Of a stretch of 47,240 bases of DNA, positions 41,526-47,240 are shown in pieces; position 1 is the first letter of the stretch; every line of letters begins with the position of its first letter. The position numbers were made by a program, and so were the translations under genes. Below the pieces are notes generated by a model. That model saw only the letters and a program-made list of their open reading frames with translations, was not told the DNA's origin and did no database searches. The DNA lies in the IMG/VR virus record IMGVR_UViG_3300000367_000002, positions 1-47,240 of that record; one strand, written 5' to 3'. Source of the DNA: a virus.

Positions 41526-41753
41526 ATGAAAAGAGTTTCCGGAGTGACTTGTCCCTGCTGCAAACTACCCACTGTTTCAGGGATCTTGGGCCCTGGAGAG
41601 AGGGCATCCCTTAGCTCCCCTGAGTATGGTGGCGGAGTGGACAGCTTCGATACCGTTTGTGCCTGCATCGAGTATCTTGAGCAGGTGCCCCGCCTCTTGG
41701 ATAAATACACGGAAGTCTTGAAAGAAAATATTATGGTGGAGCCGCCATGTTGA
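41526..41753 (+). CDS. Small Cys-containing protein of unknown function
   Basis: A 75-residue protein starting at ATG 41526 after AAGGAAGGG. The N-terminus has a TCPCCKLPT knuckle and there is a later VCACIEYLEQVPRLLDKYTE helix, so a zinc site is possible. It overlaps the FAD oxidoreductase gene by 7 bases and may belong to that operon. Confidence 0.6.
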   Translation: MKRVSGVTCPCCKLPTVSGILGPGERASLSSPEYGGGVDSFDTVCACIEYLEQVPRLLDKYTEVLKENIMVEPPC

Positions 41754-42679
41754 GAATCTATGGGGCGGGCATGGCAGGCCTGTTAGCGGCCAATATGCTG
41801 AGAAGGTTCAATCCGGTGATCTACGAAGCCCAGCCGTCGCTTCCCGACAATCACGGCGCACTTCTCCGGTTCCGGAGTGAAGCGGTGTCTCAGGCCACTG
41901 GCCAGCCGTTCAAGAAGGTGCGGGTGGCGAAAGCTGTGATGGTGGGCGGTGAACTCCGAGCCCATTCCACTCTCAAACTCAACAATTCCTACTCTCGGAA
42001 GGTTACAGGAGAGGTCATGGATCGGAGCGTTCTAAACCTCGCTCCGGTGGACCGTTATGTGGCCCCGGATAATTTCCTCAGCACGATGGCCAACGGGTTG
42101 GACATACGGTATGGGGAGCCGCTGATCGCTGGGGAGATCAAGGATTTGCAGGAGCATGTAATCTCTACTATCCCAATGCCGTCACTTATGGATATGGTGG
42201 GCTGGAAGGATATGCCCGAGTTCAAGTGGCGCTCCATCCGCACCAACAAAGCGGACATAACCGATCCTCCCACCAACGTAAACCAGACCATCTACTATCC
42301 TGAGAGCTTCTGGTCCCAGTATCGTGCTTCCATAACGGGAAATCACTTGATGGTGGAATCCTCGGTTGATGCAGAAGCGCTAGATTCCCTTGACCTGAAC
42401 AATATCCTGCACTACCACTTTGGGATAATGGATGGGAAGTTGTCCGAGCACACCCGGAAGATCCAGAAGCATGGGAAGCTGGTGCCGATTGACGAGAGGC
42501 TGAGGAGGAGATTTATCATCGAGATGTCCAACCGATATGGGATTTTCTCGGTGGGACGGTTCGCCACCTGGAGGCAAATCCTCCTCGATGATCTTGTCCA
42601 GGATATCAACCTTATCTCCGGTTGGCTCAGTGACGTCTATGGGTATGATCGGAATCTTCACTATGGGAGGGAAGGATGA
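41747..42679 (+). CDS. FAD-dependent oxidoreductase (amine-oxidase/UGM-like fold)
   Basis: A 310-residue flavoprotein. The N-terminus is a Rossmann FAD-binding site: IYGAGMAGLLAANML (G6-x-G8-x2-G11) with acidic E27 at the end of strand 2 (VIYEA). Near the C-terminus IFSVGRFATWRQILLDDLVQ resembles the FAD-contact strand-helix of UDP-galactopyranose mutase and amine-oxidase type enzymes. The sequence is shorter than those families (about 370-450). The substrate is unknown. It opens a tightly linked group with a glycosidase-like protein, ThyX, HAD phosphatase, SDR and a DUF1599-VOC fusion. Both neighbours overlap it by 4-7 bases. Confidence 0.78.
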   Translation: MLRIYGAGMAGLLAANMLRRFNPVIYEAQPSLPDNHGALLRFRSEAVSQATGQPFKKVRVAKAVMVGGELRAHSTLKLNNSYSRKVTGEVMDRSVLNLAPVDRYVAPDNFLSTMANGLDIRYGEPLIAGEIKDLQEHVISTIPMPSLMDMVGWKDMPEFKWRSIRTNKADITDPPTNVNQTIYYPESFWSQYRASITGNHLMVESSVDAEALDSLDLNNILHYHFGIMDGKLSEHTRKIQKHGKLVPIDERLRRRFIIEMSNRYGIFSVGRFATWRQILLDDLVQDINLISGWLSDVYGYDRNLHYGREG

Positions 42680-43803
42680 CTGAGAAGGAAGCCATTGCGA
42701 GGGAGCTTGAATCCCTGGCCAAGCGAGTCAGAGCGCTCCCCGGTGGAGTGGAGGTGACTCCTCCTCCCTCCTCCCTCCTCCCGGATGGGCTGTATCGGAG
42801 GGCTGATGGGGTGGAGCATTACCTTGTGGTGGGAGGGAAGCGCTACCACATCAAGGACATGGCCGATTTCCACCGTCTTGACTTGAGGTGGGAAGATGTG
42901 AAGGTGGTGTCTTGGGAACAGCTGGGCCCACTCCCGGTGCTTGATGAGTATGATCCCCCTGTTGAAGAGCGCCACAAAACCATCATCGGCATCAATGTCC
43001 AAACCTCCTCCGGCCGCCAAGCGCTCCCCTATGTGCGGGACCTGGGGATAAAGGATGTGAGAACGTCCGTCCACTACCTCAATACTCGGGAGGATCTGGA
43101 TTGGATTCACAAGTATCGTGAAGAGGGAATCAACATCCTTCCCATCATAGCTCCTCACCCAGAAAACGGGGATTTCCGGGAGCGGCTGAATTGGCTCTTT
43201 CAAAATTTCGGCTTCTTCTCGGAGGTTCAGCTGGGCAACGAGCACGACAACGAGCACACCGCTCATCCTGAAGGAGGAAGGGTGTGGGGGACGTTGACGA
43301 GGCGTGGGGCTGAAGTGGCTCGGGACCACGGATCGAAGGTAGTTGCCCATGGCCTCGGCTGGACCCAGGTGGGCGTTCACGACTATCTCCGAGCCTTTAT
43401 AGAGACAGTGGGCGATAGCGTGGATGCTATGGCTCTTCACTCCTATGGAAGCAACCCTACATGGGAGCCGATGGGGCGTGCCCGATTCTTCCAGGAGTAT
43501 GGGTGGAATGGGCCGGTTCAGGCCACAGAGGTGGGGCTGAGAGGGCCGGACAGCCGGGCATTCCTGACCGGCCATTATGGCCGGCTTCCAACTGAGGAGG
43601 AAAGCTTTCGCTATCAAGCGGAAACCTTCCACGACATTCTTACCACTCCGGACCTGGACCTTTATAGCGTTGCCTACCTGTTCCAGCTCACCCCTGACCA
43701 GAAGGAGGCACGTCTCCACGGGACCCATCATTACTGTTCAATCTTGAACGAAGATTGGACGCCTCGGCCAGCCTACAAGGTTGTGAAAGAAAGGAAGAAT
43801 TGA
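42676..43803 (+). CDS. TIM-barrel glycoside hydrolase-like protein (clan GH-A type)
   Basis: A 375-residue protein. Residues 35-90 form a small domain (DGVEHYLVVGGKRYHIKDMA). From about residue 100 it has the order of a (β/α)8 clan GH-A enzyme: KTIIGINVQTSSGRQALPYV (β1), VQLGNEHDNE with the N-E acid/base pair (β4), AMALHSYG (β6), QATEVGLRG with the likely nucleophile Glu (β7), and YSVAYLFQL (β8). GH-A enzymes hydrolyse β-linked sugars. There is no signal peptide and it is embedded among nucleotide-metabolism genes, which is odd for a cell-surface depolymerase. The exact family and substrate are unknown. Confidence 0.75.
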   Translation: MTEKEAIARELESLAKRVRALPGGVEVTPPPSSLLPDGLYRRADGVEHYLVVGGKRYHIKDMADFHRLDLRWEDVKVVSWEQLGPLPVLDEYDPPVEERHKTIIGINVQTSSGRQALPYVRDLGIKDVRTSVHYLNTREDLDWIHKYREEGINILPIIAPHPENGDFRERLNWLFQNFGFFSEVQLGNEHDNEHTAHPEGGRVWGTLTRRGAEVARDHGSKVVAHGLGWTQVGVHDYLRAFIETVGDSVDAMALHSYGSNPTWEPMGRARFFQEYGWNGPVQATEVGLRGPDSRAFLTGHYGRLPTEEESFRYQAETFHDILTTPDLDLYSVAYLFQLTPDQKEARLHGTHHYCSILNEDWTPRPAYKVVKERKN

Positions 43804-43804
43804 G

Positions 43805-44683
43805 ATGAAAGTCACACTACTCAACTACACGCCGGAAGCGCTTGAGCTTCTCCTCTTCACGAAGCAGACGCGCCTGTCCATGAGCCCAGGATTGATGGAT
43901 GAAATCCGGGATTGGCCAGCGGAGCGGAAGCAGAAGGAGCTTGACTACATGCGCGGAACGATCCAGTCGAGTTGGGAGTTTGTGGATTATACGTTCCTGA
44001 TCGATGGTGTGAGCCGAGCTTTCACCCACCAGCTGGTCCGCTCCCGAGCGAATAGCTACGCCCAGCAGTCTCAGCGCACCGTTGACATGTCCGGATTCGA
44101 GTATGTGGTGCCCCGCACGCTCCGGGTAAATCCGGGGGAGATTGTGGAGCGGACCAATGATGAAGGCAGAACATTTGATCCTGGCGCTCCGGGTTCTTAT
44201 GGGGAGGCAATGGACACTATTGATGATTATTATCAGGAGTTGGTCCAACTGGGCGTTCCTCCCCAGGATGCACGCGGAATCCTCCCCACCAACGTCGCCA
44301 CCAACATTGTCGTCAAAGCTTCGCTCCGGTCCATGGCTGATATGGGGAAGCTTCGCCTCTGCACCCGTACCCAAGGTGAGTACCAGGATGTGTTCCGGTT
44401 GATGAGGGACAGGGTTCTGGAAGTTCACCCATGGGCTGAGCCTTTTATCCGGGTGTACTGTGCCGCGACCGGAGTTTGCTGTTTCCCCAACTATATGGAA
44501 TGCCCCATCAAGGGACCACTCTTCAACCCAGACACTGGGCACCGTTGGGACGAGGCCCAGGAATATGCCTACAGCGGGGATGTGGCCGAAACTCCTCTCC
44601 CTCCCCGCACCCGAGAGGAGCAGCAGAAGGCTTGGGAGGAGATGAAGCCTTTTGAGGCTCGGCCCCAGGAGGCAAAGAAATGA
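43805..44683 (+). CDS. thyX: Flavin-dependent thymidylate synthase, divergent
   Basis: A 292-residue ThyX-type protein, which makes dTMP from dUMP with FAD, NADPH and methylene-tetrahydrofolate. The signature region reads RSRANSYAQQSQR (79-91), against the canonical RHRxxSxNExSxR: both Arg (79, 81), the Ser (84, 89) and the last Arg (91) are kept, but His is Ser80 and Asn is Ala86, and Glu is Gln87 (as in many Q-type ThyX). Preceding FTHQLV and following LRLCTRTQGEYQDVFRLM segments fit the fold. The C-terminus carries extra Cys (GVCCFPNYMECPI). It is longer than typical ThyX (about 220-250). The start ATG 43805 follows GGAAG. It may be a normal synthase or act on another one-carbon reaction on dUMP. 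Confidence 0.88.
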   Translation: MKVTLLNYTPEALELLLFTKQTRLSMSPGLMDEIRDWPAERKQKELDYMRGTIQSSWEFVDYTFLIDGVSRAFTHQLVRSRANSYAQQSQRTVDMSGFEYVVPRTLRVNPGEIVERTNDEGRTFDPGAPGSYGEAMDTIDDYYQELVQLGVPPQDARGILPTNVATNIVVKASLRSMADMGKLRLCTRTQGEYQDVFRLMRDRVLEVHPWAEPFIRVYCAATGVCCFPNYMECPIKGPLFNPDTGHRWDEAQEYAYSGDVAETPLPPRTREEQQKAWEEMKPFEARPQEAKK

Positions 44684-45120
44684 CGAAGTGGGCAATCTTC
44701 GACCTGGACTCAACACTCTGTGATGATCTTCACCGGCGTCCATTCGCATTGGAGAAGAAGTGGGATGAGTACCATGCCTTTCTAGGATTGGACAAGGCTC
44801 GCAGAGCGGAACAGGCCGTGGCACAGGCTTGGTATGGATCAAGCTATAACAATATGATCGCGATTGTGACTGGGCGACCGGGGAAGTACATGGATGAAAC
44901 GGTAGAATGGCTTCGGCACCACCAGATTCCTTTTGATGAGCTTTACATGCGAGCGGAAAAGGATTTTCGGCCCAACTGGGAGCATAAGAAAGAGGTGTAT
45001 GAAAACCATTTCTGGGACCGGGATGTGGTGTTCGTGATGGAGGATGATGATGAGGTTGTGGGAATGTGGCGAGAGTTGGGTTTGACTTGTTTCCAGGTTC
45101 AACCGGGAGTAAAGAAATGA
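44680..45120 (+). CDS. HAD-family phosphatase (polynucleotide 3'-phosphatase-like)
   Basis: A 146-residue HAD hydrolase. Motif I is IFDLDSTLCD (nucleophile and general acid Asp), motif II AIVTGRP (Thr), and motif III/IV region VFVMEDDDEVVGMW with Lys from HKKEVY nearby. This short form, with VTGRPGKYMDETVEWLRHHQ and FDELYMRAEKDFRPNWEHKK, resembles the 3'-phosphatase domain of T4 Pnkp and related nucleotide phosphatases. It may dephosphorylate DNA 3' ends or a nucleotide intermediate of the neighbouring enzymes. Its ATG overlaps the ThyX stop. Confidence 0.85.
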   Translation: MTKWAIFDLDSTLCDDLHRRPFALEKKWDEYHAFLGLDKARRAEQAVAQAWYGSSYNNMIAIVTGRPGKYMDETVEWLRHHQIPFDELYMRAEKDFRPNWEHKKEVYENHFWDRDVVFVMEDDDEVVGMWRELGLTCFQVQPGVKK

Positions 45121-45881
45121 TGAGAAGTATTGCGGCGGTGACCGGGGGATCGAACGGCCTGGGAAGGGCAATTTTGGCCAGGCTGTTGGGGAATTATGAC
45201 TTTGTGGTGAACTTCGATTTGAATGCCCCCGAGCAGCTGTTTGAGGGTGAGCTTTGGATTTCCTCGGATGTGGGCAGCCATTCGGATTGCCGGCTGGCCG
45301 TTGAAGAGGCTGTTGAGAAGTTGGAGAGAGAAATTGTTGATGATGAGTTTCAGTTTGAGGTGCTGGTGAATAACGCTGGGGTCAATGATATCAACTTCTT
45401 TGAGGATATTGAGCCATTCCTTTGGGACAATGTGATGGGCGTGAACGCAATGGGGATTTTCAATATGTCCCAGGCGTTGTTCCTCCTCCTCAAGGACAGC
45501 CAGGGCACGATCCTCAACATCACCAGTAATGCGGCTTGGGTGCCGATGACCTCTTCGCTGGTCTATAATGCGAGCAAAGCGGCAGCCCATATGATGACGA
45601 TTCAAATGGCCCACGAGTTTCACCGTCGCTCCATCCCGATCACAGTTTTCGGGATCGCTCCGGGAAAGATTGAGGGCACCCCAATGAGCCGCTATATTGA
45701 GGGGAGGGTGGTGGAAACGAGGGGCTGGACCCCGGAGTTTGCGAAGGAATACCAATTGAACAGCCTCAAGTCAGGGAATGAGACGAGTCCAGAACAGCTG
45801 GCCAATTTCATTGGATTTCTCCTCTCTGGACCTGAGCATCACCGGCAACTGGCCGGCTGCATTCTTCCCTACGGGGCCTGA
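45117..45881 (+). CDS. Short-chain dehydrogenase/reductase (SDR)
   Basis: A 254-residue classical SDR. It has AAVTGGSNGLGRAIL (TGxxxGxG cofactor site), VLVNNAGVND (NNAG), a Ser in ILNITSNAAW, and YNASKAAAH (catalytic Y-x3-K), then FGIAPGKIEGTPM (substrate loop). The acidic residue after strand 2 (NFDLNAP) suggests NAD(H). The length matches the family. Substrate unknown. It overlaps the HAD gene by 4 bases and could oxidise or reduce an intermediate made by its neighbours. SDRs are uncommon in phages. Confidence 0.9.
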   Translation: MMRSIAAVTGGSNGLGRAILARLLGNYDFVVNFDLNAPEQLFEGELWISSDVGSHSDCRLAVEEAVEKLEREIVDDEFQFEVLVNNAGVNDINFFEDIEPFLWDNVMGVNAMGIFNMSQALFLLLKDSQGTILNITSNAAWVPMTSSLVYNASKAAAHMMTIQMAHEFHRRSIPITVFGIAPGKIEGTPMSRYIEGRVVETRGWTPEFAKEYQLNSLKSGNETSPEQLANFIGFLLSGPEHHRQLAGCILPYGA

Positions 45882-45928
45882 GTAAGGACCCAGGGGCACA
45901 CCCAATCACAGCGGAGACACGAAGCTAG

Positions 45929-46741
45929 ATGGACAGAAATTCCAGAATTGTGACCGGAGCCCATGGACAGGAAGCTTTTGAGGGCCTTTTGGAGGAAATG
46001 GCCAATACGCGAGCTGAGAAGGTTCTTCAGTATGGCGCGGACCTTCAGCTGATCGACAACTGGCCGGAAGCGAGCCTGATGGGGTATGCGAACATTGGGC
46101 GAAAGTGGAGACGGCTGAAGAGGCTGATGTGGGGCGTGGTGTTTGAGGAAAAGCGCGAGCTGAACTTGGAGGAGAAGAAGGGCTTGAGGGAAGCGCTTCT
46201 GGACATGGCGAGTTATTGCCTGTATGCTGTGCAGATGATGGACAAGCTGAGCCCTGTCCCAGCCACCAAGCCGGGGGCAAGATTCCCAGTGGATCAGGTC
46301 GCTATCTATGCCCCCCATCCCGAGAAGCTTATCAGCCTTCTGCGGGACCTCGGTTGTGATGAGTGGTTTCATGACCGGGTCAGTGCCCATGGGGAAGTTT
46401 TCGAGAGGAAATCTGGGAATGTGGCTGACCTTGCTTTCAACTACCAGCTGATCCCTGGGGTGGAGTTTGAGGTTCTGAGCTACCGGGAGGGGGGAAATTG
46501 GATTGAAGCGATTGGGGCTGAACGCACCAATGGGCTTTCCCATCTCGGAGTGCACGTGGAGGACCTTGATGGAGCGGTTCGGTTCATGGAGGCACAGGGC
46601 TACAAGATCGCCCAACAGGTCACCACCCAGAGCCATACCAATCCGCATATCGCCAACAGCAGAAGGTATGAATATGTCATTTTCGATTCCCGAGATCAAA
46701 TCGGGTTCGATCTCAAGCTCATCAAACGTTTGCCCCTATGA
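45929..46741 (+). CDS. DUF1599 (nucleotide-modification-associated)-like domain fused to a VOC/glyoxalase domain
   Basis: A 270-residue two-domain protein. Residues about 15-105 are helical with EGLLEEMANTRAEKVLQYG, then IGRKWRRLKRL and LLDMASYCLYAV. This pattern is that of DUF1599, also called nucleotide modification associated domain 1, which is found in phages and related to MazG-like helical folds. Residues about 118-268 are a vicinal-oxygen-chelate/glyoxalase-like domain: VDQVAIYAPHPEKLISLLRD, then LSHLGVHVEDLDGAVRFMEA (H205) and YVIFDSRDQIGFDLKLI. VOC domains bind metal and catalyse isomerisation, lyase or dioxygenase reactions. The fusion suggests both act on the same nucleotide. The ribosome site is weak (GCGGAG 11 bases upstream). 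Domain names are from pattern recognition. Confidence 0.7.
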   Translation: MDRNSRIVTGAHGQEAFEGLLEEMANTRAEKVLQYGADLQLIDNWPEASLMGYANIGRKWRRLKRLMWGVVFEEKRELNLEEKKGLREALLDMASYCLYAVQMMDKLSPVPATKPGARFPVDQVAIYAPHPEKLISLLRDLGCDEWFHDRVSAHGEVFERKSGNVADLAFNYQLIPGVEFEVLSYREGGNWIEAIGAERTNGLSHLGVHVEDLDGAVRFMEAQGYKIAQQVTTQSHTNPHIANSRRYEYVIFDSRDQIGFDLKLIKRLPL

Positions 46742-47240
46742 TAGTGTTCGACCTGGAAACGACAGGCCTATTGAAACCGGATGTGGTGCCCCTGGCTCAG
46801 CAGCCTCGGATCATTGAGATTTGTGTGGTGAAGCTGGACGATGAGACACTGGAGTTTGTGGACAGTGACGAGTTTCTGATAAATCCAGGGATCAAGCTGG
46901 ATCCAAAGATTGTCGAGATCACTGGGATAACGGACAAGATGCTGGAAAAGGAGCCGCCTTTTGTCGCTCGCTACCGCACATTGGCCAACTTCTTCCTCGG
47001 GGAAAAGAAGCTGCTGGCCCACAATTGCCCCTTCGATGCTGGTGTGCTGTCGTGTGACCTGAGGAGGATTGAAAAACAATTCCACTTCCCTTGGCCACCG
47101 GATAGGCTTTGCTCGGTTGAGCTGACCCAGCACATCACTGGGAAGTATATGAAGCTGGACGCGCTGTACAAGCATGCCTTCGGGAAGGCTCCTTCCCCCA
47201 CTCGCCATAGGGCTGGTGGGGATGTTGAAATTCTTGTGGA
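46738..47240 (+). CDS. DEDDh 3'-5' exonuclease (DnaQ-like), 3' truncated
   Basis: Begins with ATG 46738, overlapping the previous stop (ATGA), and remains open to the end of the window (167 codons visible). The three exonuclease motifs are present: MIVFDLETTGL (D5, E7; ExoI), LLAHNCPFDAGVL (H-N-x2-F-D; ExoII), and RHRAGGDVEILV (H-x4-D; ExoIIIε). It may be the separate proofreading subunit for a phage polymerase encoded downstream, or a nuclease in recombination. The first base after the window will show whether more domains follow. Confidence 0.9.
   Translation, partial: MIVFDLETTGLLKPDVVPLAQQPRIIEICVVKLDDETLEFVDSDEFLINPGIKLDPKIVEITGITDKMLEKEPPFVARYRTLANFFLGEKKLLAHNCPFDAGVLSCDLRRIEKQFHFPWPPDRLCSVELTQHITGKYMKLDALYKHAFGKAPSPTRHRAGGDVEILV

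What the first reader, a model, noticed from the sequence alone, without database searches (positions are those of the whole stretch)
41526..47240. Metabolic cluster that may be an undescribed nucleotide or DNA-base modification pathway
Within 5.7 kb and with overlapping stops and starts lie a FAD oxidoreductase, a GH-A-like TIM barrel, a divergent ThyX, a HAD phosphatase, an SDR, and a DUF1599-VOC fusion. DUF1599 is named after its association with nucleotide modification in phages. ThyX-type chemistry on dUMP, followed by redox, isomerase/lyase and phosphatase steps, would be a reasonable toolkit for making a modified pyrimidine nucleotide. I see no kinase, glycosyltransferase or DNA-acting transferase here, so a modification after DNA synthesis is not directly supported. 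Ordinary dTMP supply plus unrelated genes is the main alternative.
Basis: partly seen in the sequence, partly recalled or inferred. Interest (0 to 1): 0.78.

Follow-up and report, generated by a model that had tools for sequence, protein, structure and literature searches.

The report
Putative phage DNA-letter modification cassette
A set of phage enzymes that travel together next to the phage's DNA polymerase, including an altered thymidylate-synthase-like enzyme and a flavin enzyme of unknown function, looks like a pathway for making an unusual DNA building block, and it is carried by phages whose DNA has been reported to resist restriction enzymes without an established cause.

Summary
The gene cluster is real; five of its six metabolic genes belong to a conserved phage cassette. 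Order in relatives: FAD enzyme (UDP-galactopyranose-mutase-like fold), ThyX-like protein, HAD phosphatase, small helical DUF6378-like domain, optional SDR and VOC, then DnaQ and DNA polymerase. Of 165 distinct loci with the FAD enzyme, 163 have the ThyX-like gene; for the other two the sequence held ends just after the FAD enzyme. Reciprocally, 61 of 63 such ThyX loci have the FAD enzyme. VOC never occurs without SDR (51 of 51 loci). In 25 of the 165 loci a carbamoyl-, sulfo- or methyltransferase, an oxygenase or a putative glycosyltransferase is added, as in known base-modification pathways. The ThyX-like protein keeps dUMP-binding residues but changes its cofactor side. Pbunavirus and Wifcevirus carry the cassette and are reported to resist restriction without an established cause. 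I favour synthesis of a modified deoxyuridine nucleotide that is built into phage DNA; no product has been shown. Against it: the protein passes NCBI's thyX cut-off, resistance is partial and not specific to cassette phages, and a site-avoidance test was uninformative. The TIM-barrel candidate occurs only in this window; the DUF1599 label is not confirmed.

The parts
41747..42679 (+). FAD enzyme (PHROG 4828), UDP-galactopyranose-mutase/amine-oxidase-like fold; core of cassette
   Evidence: PHROG 4828 E 2e-65; AlphaFold2 model pLDDT 90; VIA Z 22 to UGM; G6, G8, G11 and E27 invariant in an alignment of 38 sequences, window included
42676..43803 (+). 375-aa protein, TIM-barrel candidate; insertion found only in this window, not part of the conserved cassette
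   Evidence: no family match; no relative; 1 of 165 loci
43805..44683 (+). ThyX-like protein (RSR in place of RHR); core of cassette
   Evidence: PF02511 E 1.7e-37; TIGR02170 94.6 bits, cut-off 87.9; residue table
44680..45120 (+). HAD phosphatase, PNKP-phosphatase-like, no kinase domain matched; core of cassette
   Evidence: PF25109 E 1.6e-24
45120..45881 (+). short-chain dehydrogenase (PHROG 3142), S136, Y149 and K153 invariant in an alignment of 5 sequences; accessory, paired with VOC
   Evidence: PF00106 E 2.2e-33; PHROG 3142 E 4.4e-40; alignment
45929..46741 (+). fusion: N-terminal helical segment (about 1-115, possibly the DUF6378-like domain) plus VOC domain (about 118-270) with methylmalonyl-CoA-epimerase-like fold
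   Evidence: PF13669 E 9.3e-10; VIA Z 16.6 to 3gm5 over 137 residues; helical segment modelled with pLDDT mostly under 70
46738..47240 (+). DnaQ-like exonuclease, cut by the window end; in relatives followed by DnaE-type polymerase
   Evidence: PF00929 E 2.4e-24; PHROG 192 E 1.6e-33; synteny

Best explanation
This is one member of a widespread phage cassette that most likely makes a C5-modified deoxyuridine nucleotide, which the adjacent DnaQ/DnaE replicase builds into phage DNA and which blunts restriction. Proposed steps: (1) the ThyX-like protein binds dUMP and flavin and forms a C5 adduct that is not, or not only, dTMP, for example 5-hydroxymethyl-dUMP (dUMP-binding residues conserved: shown; changed product: inferred). 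(2) The UGM-like flavoenzyme, its nearly invariant partner, works on the same uridine nucleotide (partnership shown; chemistry inferred). (3) The HAD phosphatase and DUF6378-like helical domain trim or dephosphorylate competing nucleotides or intermediates (inferred). (4) SDR plus VOC, or in other phages carbamoyl-, sulfo- or methyltransferases or a putative glycosyltransferase, elaborate the group (co-location shown; substrate inferred). (5) Incorporation by the neighbouring polymerase (inferred from position).
For: Linkage: 163 of 165 distinct FAD-enzyme loci carry the ThyX-like gene; in the two others (L067, L175) the sequence held ends 374 and 145 bases after the FAD enzyme. Reciprocal: 61 of 63 distinct ThyX loci with over 1.5 kb upstream have the FAD enzyme. 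Of 118 loci holding DnaQ and DnaE, 104 have both HAD and helical domain. VOC is in 51 of 165 loci, always with SDR. Domain shuffling keeps the set: HAD and helical domain are one protein in 20 cases and separate genes in the rest of the 130 loci that have both. Named phages: FAD enzyme in 359 of 50,697 records; the FAD-enzyme and ThyX searches list the same 291 Pseudomonas, 27 Escherichia and 9 Serratia counts, while the ThyX search adds groups (62 Gordonia, 31 Halorubrum, 26 Mycobacterium) that cannot be in the FAD list. Tailoring families in or beside cassettes of 25 of 165 loci: methyltransferase-like 15 (one of them, L251, after DnaQ), carbamoyltransferase 5 (4 of 5 confirmed by Pfam, counting L083 and L116 as one contig), putative glycosyltransferase 4, sulfotransferase 2, 2OG oxygenase 1. 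A carbamoyltransferase beside a thymidylate-synthase homologue is known to decorate 5-hydroxymethylcytosine (PMC8670742, passages). ThyX-like: Q75, R78, R80, R90, R147 and R174 (T. maritima numbering) kept in 68 of 68; H53 is Ile in 68 of 68; H79 is kept in 4 of 68. [quoted passage not shown] Bas99, one of them, carries the full cassette. Pbunavirus JG024 carries FAD enzyme, ThyX-like, HAD-helical fusion, DnaQ and DnaE; its DNA was not cut by ScaI, NdeI or BsaI (PMC10913387 passages), although I count 2, 10 and 5 sites.
Against: The window protein passes NCBI's thyX equivalog cut-off (94.6 against 87.9 bits), so plain dTMP synthesis is possible. H53 is also absent in 4 of 9 other ThyX proteins with a residue there, and H79 in 4 of 10, so these losses are not special to the cassette. 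Resistance is partial: JG024 is cut by XbaI and SacII; the PB1-like P1-14pyo is cut by Sau3A and AluI and incompletely by EcoRI and HindIII; the Pbunaviruses AA20 and AC20 resist 10 and 7 of 16 enzymes but are cut by HindIII, and U17 of another genus was itself sensitive to only 11 of the 16, so AC20 is hardly above it. Resistance to restriction without a known protection gene is also reported for the N4-like Bas96, so it is not specific to cassette phages. Wifcevirus isolates stay very sensitive to EcoP1_I. JG024 authors suggest methylation; they amplified the whole genome by PCR and assembled it from sequencing, with no trouble told in the passages I saw. No known hmdU DNA kinase (PF18723) in 14 cassette records, while M6 rings. 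The published carbamoyltransferase did not act on 5hmdUTP. The loci share a replication module, so common descent explains part of the linkage. 140 of 165 loci have none of the five tailoring families, and JG024 has no SDR or VOC in the half-genome scanned.
Confidence: 0.55

Rival explanations
1. Ordinary dTMP supply: the ThyX-like protein makes dTMP for replication, the FAD enzyme serves it (for instance as a reductant or chaperone-like partner), and HAD, helical domain, SDR and VOC are nucleotide-pool or host-metabolism genes kept by common descent of the replication module.
For: Passes the thyX equivalog cut-off; dUMP-binding residues kept, and position 88 is Ser in 53, Thr in 11 and Ala in 4 of 68; genes sit in a shared replication module.
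Against: In a spread of 45 of 592 ThyX records, the rows fall into 40.2-46.4% identity (cassette phages) and 26.7-34.9% (others), so this is a separate branch. Pairing with a separate flavoenzyme, SDR-VOC coupling and tailoring transferases are not expected for dTMP supply. The published restriction resistance is left unexplained.
Confidence: 0.27
2. The cassette makes a free modified nucleotide or nucleotide-sugar that acts as a small-molecule counter-defence or host-takeover metabolite and is not incorporated into DNA.
For: UGM-like fold suggests a nucleotide-diphosphate substrate; HAD, SDR, VOC and transferases also fit small-molecule biosynthesis.
Against: Position directly upstream of DnaQ-DnaE in the loci long enough to show it and reported restriction resistance of cassette phages point to DNA.
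Confidence: 0.1
3. Restriction resistance of cassette phages is due to DNA methylation or anti-restriction proteins, and the cassette is irrelevant to it (overlaps the other rivals).
For: JG024 authors suggest methylation (PMC10913387 passages); the resistance pattern is partial; the N4-like Bas96, of another group, also resists without a known mechanism.
Against: BASEL authors report no known genome protection mechanism in Wifcevirus; both genera share the cassette.
Confidence: 0.25

Closest known systems
Thymidine hypermodification pathways (Pseudomonas phage M6/YuA, Salmonella ViI, Delftia phiW-14)
   Same: Thymidylate-synthase-type enzyme near the phage DNA polymerase with dedicated partner and tailoring enzymes; restriction resistance.
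   Different: M6 has a 5-hmdU DNA kinase domain (PF18723 rings in M6; 0 of 14 cassette records) and no ThyX. Here a ThyX-like protein plus a UGM-like flavoenzyme. Further details of those pathways are recalled.
Bacillus phage SP-15 (two Thy1-family proteins, hypermodified thymine)
   Same: A PF02511 protein is proposed by its authors to be the hydroxymethyluridylate synthase (PMC5977210 passages); I find PF02511 matches in two regions of the record.
   Different: The second region, at 115.8 kb, which I take for gp130, is a far weaker match (E 6e-7). No cassette gene profile matched in the 12 kb of SP-15 around gp9; the rest was not searched for the FAD enzyme.
5-hydroxymethylcytosine carbamoyltransferase systems (MetaGPA)
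   Same: Carbamoyltransferase co-located with a thymidylate-synthase-type enzyme in contigs; 5 of my 165 loci have a carbamoyltransferase in the cassette.
   Different: That system uses ThyA-type enzymes and the carbamoyltransferase tested was specific for 5hmdCTP over 5hmdUTP (PMC8670742 passages).
UDP-galactopyranose mutase / flavin amine oxidase superfamily
   Same: Fold over nearly the whole chain (Z 22, 298 residues, 3.6 A, 19% identity to 4dsg); GxGxxG and Glu of the FAD site invariant.
   Different: No sequence match in PDB at E up to 5 and only a sub-threshold Pfam match; function cannot be transferred.

Membership tests
Flavin-dependent thymidylate synthase (ThyX) | Match to PF02511 / TIGR02170 | tested here: met
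   E 1.7e-37; 94.6 bits over cut-off 87.9
Flavin-dependent thymidylate synthase (ThyX) | RHR(X7)S signature (recalled) | tested here: not met
   RSR(X7)S in the window; the His is kept in 4 of 68 distinct cassette proteins and in 6 of 10 other ThyX sequences; hence 'ThyX-like'
Flavin-dependent thymidylate synthase (ThyX) | Converts dUMP to dTMP | not testable with these tools
   no assay; dUMP-contact residues (recalled assignments) kept
Known thymidine hypermodification pathway (M6 type) | 5-hmdU DNA kinase helical domain PF18723 | tested here: not met
   0 of 14 cassette records; positive control M6 rings. The window itself was not in this search; no kinase family was matched among the ten proteins of its right end scanned
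Known thymidine hypermodification pathway (M6 type) | Modified thymidine in virion DNA | not testable with these tools
   needs LC-MS
UDP-galactopyranose mutase | Overall fold | tested here: met
   Foldseek E 3.2e-12, Z 22
UDP-galactopyranose mutase | Conserved UDP-Gal binding residues and mutase activity | not tested
   no coordinates compared residue by residue
DUF1599 / nucleotide modification associated domain 1 | Match to the Pfam model by the N-terminal part of 45929-46741 | tested here: not met
   no match at E up to 1
DUF6378 (helical domain of relatives) | Match to PF19905 | tested here: inconclusive
   14 of 24 relatives match, the best at 24.9 bits against cut-off 27.1; window segment no match
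VOC superfamily | Fold and Pfam match | tested here: met
   PF13669 E 9.3e-10, 39.2 bits over cut-off 27; Z 16.6 to 3gm5
Clan GH-A glycoside hydrolase (42676-43803) | Profile match or TIM-barrel structure | tested here: inconclusive
   no profile or sequence match; structure not predicted

The most novel reading that the evidence does not exclude
A new class of phage pyrimidine modification in which a ThyX-family protein and a UDP-galactopyranose-mutase-like flavoenzyme together make a non-canonical deoxyuridine nucleotide, with interchangeable tailoring modules (SDR+VOC, carbamoyl, sulfo, methyl, putative glycosyl); it is present in hundreds of phages, including the Pbunaviruses, and accounts for their restriction resistance.
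Probability: 0.42. Interest if true: 0.87.

Novelty: new variant of a known kind. Interest (0 to 1): 0.7.

Why it matters
If true, the DNA of Pbunaviruses (described in PMC11990801 as among the P. aeruginosa phages most used for personalised therapy) and of Wifceviruses carries an unrecognised modified base, which would explain reported restriction resistance and affect phage engineering, CRISPR use and sequencing. It would give a function to PHROG 4828, a flavoenzyme family found here in hundreds of phages and without an assigned role, and show that ThyX-family proteins, not only ThyA ones, were recruited for DNA modification. The question can be answered with one LC-MS run on existing phage stocks.

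Tried and rejected
Restriction-site avoidance as a footprint of T modification: JG024 avoids several GC-rich sites (SacII 3 against 32.6 expected) and not EcoRI or NdeI, which looked like protection of T-containing sites. But the T-modified controls M6 and YuA (parts of the genomes) did not show the predicted pattern, and KPP10, unmodified by assumption, looked like JG024, so the test is uninformative and I do not use it.

Known hmdU-kinase pathway: not supported. Kinase reading of 'polynucleotide kinase' annotations: rejected for the three proteins so annotated in Pluto, Bas99 and DL68, which show a HAD domain and no kinase family in Pfam; two of the three have a weak DUF6378 match in the tail. 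Single-sequence searches for the FAD enzyme and the TIM-barrel candidate in contig collections found nothing; an alignment query was needed for the FAD enzyme. Profile comparison of the helical domain with the window fusion gave probability 0.3%. No PDB sequence relatives for the FAD enzyme at E up to 5 and no convincing ones for the helical domain, the VOC profile or the putative glycosyltransferase; 'glycosyltransferase' for that group rests on a conserved DDN motif read by eye, without a family match. An early hand count in my note placed R147 wrongly; the aligned table corrects it: R147 is conserved. Searches for papers on Pbunavirus, Wifcevirus or Lindbergviridae with DNA modification or restriction digests, on ThyX in hypermodification and on DUF1599/DUF6378 gave capped listings in which no title or abstract start describes this cassette; the library lacks most subscription journals. 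[quoted passage not shown] the passages I saw name such genes (deazaguanine) only for AA17. Seen as passages without changing the conclusion: PMC12390725, PMC7824862, PMC7504290, PMC9599517, PMC8481504. [quoted passage not shown]

Rows dropped before counts: one search used 275 loci (window, L002-L089 and L116-L301; L001 and L090-L115 left out) and kept 165 by identical last 250 residues of the FAD enzyme, 87 ThyX to 68 distinct, 80 loci to 69 distinct ThyX, then 63 with more than 1.5 kb upstream. The related-loci runs keep at most 80 of 430-509 relatives each. Family calls in loci used E 1e-4 with profiles built from one to nine sequences, so absences (HAD and helical domain both missing in 12 of 118) may be divergence: Ss1 and VA-RY-3, counted as lacking them, have a weakly matching HAD with a DUF3310 tail.
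Full report
What is there. The window is a 47,240-base IMG/VR virus record with a terminase end, head and tape-measure genes on the left and replication genes on the right. Between about 41.7 and 47.2 kb lie tightly packed + strand genes whose stops and starts overlap or nearly touch: a FAD enzyme, a 375-residue protein without detected relatives, a ThyX-like protein, a HAD phosphatase, an SDR, a fusion of a helical segment with a VOC domain, and a DnaQ exonuclease cut by the record end.

A conserved cassette. In named phages the same genes occur in the same order just upstream of DnaQ and the DnaE-type polymerase: Luteibacter phage Pluto, Xanthomonas XcP1, Pantoea Kyle and Escherichia Bas99 have FAD enzyme, ThyX-like protein, HAD with helical tail, SDR and VOC; Pseudomonas DL68 (Pbunavirus), Cronobacter Ss1 and Vibrio VA-RY-3 have shorter versions. 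Rhizobium phage Y65 (L006) also has FAD enzyme, ThyX-like protein and helical domain. SDR and VOC of the window are 44-51% identical to those of Pluto, XcP1, Kyle and Bas99. The FAD enzyme is found in 359 of 50,697 phage records, 354 of them over at least 80% of the query.

Metagenomic survey. An alignment query found 470 relatives of the FAD enzyme in viral contigs; further queries found 509, 430 and 476, overlapping; at most 80 loci per query were kept. Together with the window and eight named phages these make 275 loci, 165 after removing repeats. The ThyX-like gene is in 163; in the two without, L067 and L175, the sequence held ends 374 and 145 bases after the FAD enzyme. Among 118 loci with both DnaQ and DnaE, HAD and the helical domain are both present in 104, SDR in 43 and VOC in 38; over all 165 loci VOC is in 51, never without SDR. 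HAD and helical domain occur together in 130 loci, fused in 20 cases. The reciprocal search started from ThyX: 61 of 63 distinct loci with more than 1.5 kb upstream contain the FAD enzyme; L336 and L337 do not, though both have HAD and helical domain, and L336 has little sequence upstream. In a scan of genome contigs of 84,980 bacterial and archaeal species only one relative was found, in a metagenome-assembled genome, and it too lies in FAD enzyme-ThyX-HAD-helical domain-DnaQ, so as far as this scan reaches the family is essentially viral. The TIM-barrel candidate and the 88-residue ORF before the FAD enzyme were found in none of the other 88 loci.

Tailoring genes. In 25 of the 165 loci one of five extra families is present: a methyltransferase-like family in 15 (all between FAD enzyme and DnaQ except L251), carbamoyltransferases in 5 (L116, L118, L150, L194, L246), a family with a DDN motif that I take for glycosyltransferases in 4, without profile support, sulfotransferases in 2 (L005, L222) and a 2OG-Fe(II) oxygenase in 1; Pfam support is. 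A radical SAM protein family occurs in 4 loci. Pyrimidine-dimer-glycosylase-like proteins (PF03013) are frequent: 51 loci for one family and 11 for a cluster whose example matches the same Pfam family. A carbamoyltransferase beside a thymidylate synthase homologue is the arrangement that led to 5-carbamoyloxymethylcytosine (PMC8670742, passages); the enzyme there was specific for 5hmdCTP over 5hmdUTP.

The enzymes. In 68 distinct cassette ThyX-like proteins, residues that bind dUMP in T. maritima ThyX (assignments recalled: Q75, R90, R147, R174) and R78 and R80 are invariant, position 88 is Ser in 53, Thr in 11 and Ala in 4, H53 (recalled as stacking on the folate) is always Ile, H79 is Thr in 58 and kept in 4, and H178 is Arg or Lys in all. 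In ten other ThyX sequences H53 is present in 5 of 9 with a residue there and H79 in 6 of 10. So uridylate binding looks kept and the cofactor side changed, but not uniquely, and the window protein still scores above the thyX equivalog cut-off. The FAD enzyme model (pLDDT 90) has its best matches in UDP-galactopyranose mutases, Z 22, followed by protoporphyrinogen oxidases near 20 and monoamine oxidases near 18; a nucleotide-binding flavoenzyme fold suits a uridine nucleotide substrate, but fold does not give function. The VOC domain is closest to methylmalonyl-CoA epimerases (Z 16.6 to 3gm5). The three HAD proteins annotated as polynucleotide kinases that I scanned show no kinase family.

Phenotype of cassette carriers. 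PMC11990801 (section 16 read) says that four Wifcevirus isolates are insensitive to all tested defence systems including restriction, except EcoP1_I, despite lacking any known genome protection mechanism; Bas99 is one of them and has the cassette. The same paper says the like of the N4-like Bas96 (passage), so such resistance is not proof of a modified base. PMC10913387 (passages) says that JG024 DNA was not cut by ScaI, NdeI or BsaI and was cut by XbaI; its genome has FAD enzyme, ThyX-like protein and the HAD-helical fusion and 2, 10, 5 and 6 sites for these enzymes. PMC3634792 (passages) reports incomplete EcoRI and HindIII digestion of a PB1-like phage. PMC11945000 (passages) reports two Pbunaviruses resisting 10 and 7 of 16 enzymes, though both were cut by HindIII, a Bruynoghevirus in the same panel was sensitive to only 11, and some enzymes may lack sites (JG024 has no SmaI or XhoI site). 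These data fit partial replacement of a base but do not identify it or prove it.

Interpretation. Strict partnership, position at the replicase, domain shuffling that keeps the set, and interchangeable transferases are what one expects of a nucleotide-modification pathway more than of plain dTMP supply. I put 0.55 on a modified deoxyuridine nucleotide incorporated in DNA, 0.27 on dTMP supply with unrelated genes, and 0.1 on a free metabolite. That the restriction resistance has another cause is an overlapping rival at 0.25. The step that would settle it is nucleoside mass spectrometry on existing phages. It is a new variant of a known kind (phage pyrimidine modification), with a ThyX/UGM-like core that I did not find described in the papers listed by my searches.

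Noticed in passing
L002:8723-10084, L008:8807-9679, L009:11249-12268: Proteins annotated 'polynucleotide kinase' in Pluto, Bas99 and DL68 show a HAD phosphatase domain and no kinase family in Pfam: likely misannotation.
   Followed up: yes
window:42676-43803: A 375-residue protein with no relative detected in three collections sits inside an otherwise conserved cassette; its first part looks coiled-coil-like by eye.
   Followed up: partly
L064:6039-6566, L202:7851-8219: Pyrimidine-dimer-glycosylase-like proteins (PF03013) occur in or next to the cassette in many loci (51 of 165 for one family); possibly linked to the modified base.
   Followed up: partly
L004:9235-9681: Cronobacter phage Ss1 carries an HNH homing endonuclease (PF13392) between its HAD protein and DnaQ, in the cassette.
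   Followed up: no
window:20001-24000: GC content rises to about 0.65 in a tail-fibre region with repeated tail-protein matches, against 0.52-0.58 elsewhere.
   Followed up: no
Stenotrophomonas phage AXL3 (PMC7504290, passages): Carries both a thymidylate synthase and a thymidylate-synthase-complementing (ThyX-type) gene and has DNA resistant to 35 of 37 restriction enzymes; not checked for the FAD enzyme.
   Followed up: no
L243:13096-14148: A radical SAM/SPASM protein (PF04055, PF13186) sits in the cassette region of 4 loci.
   Followed up: partly
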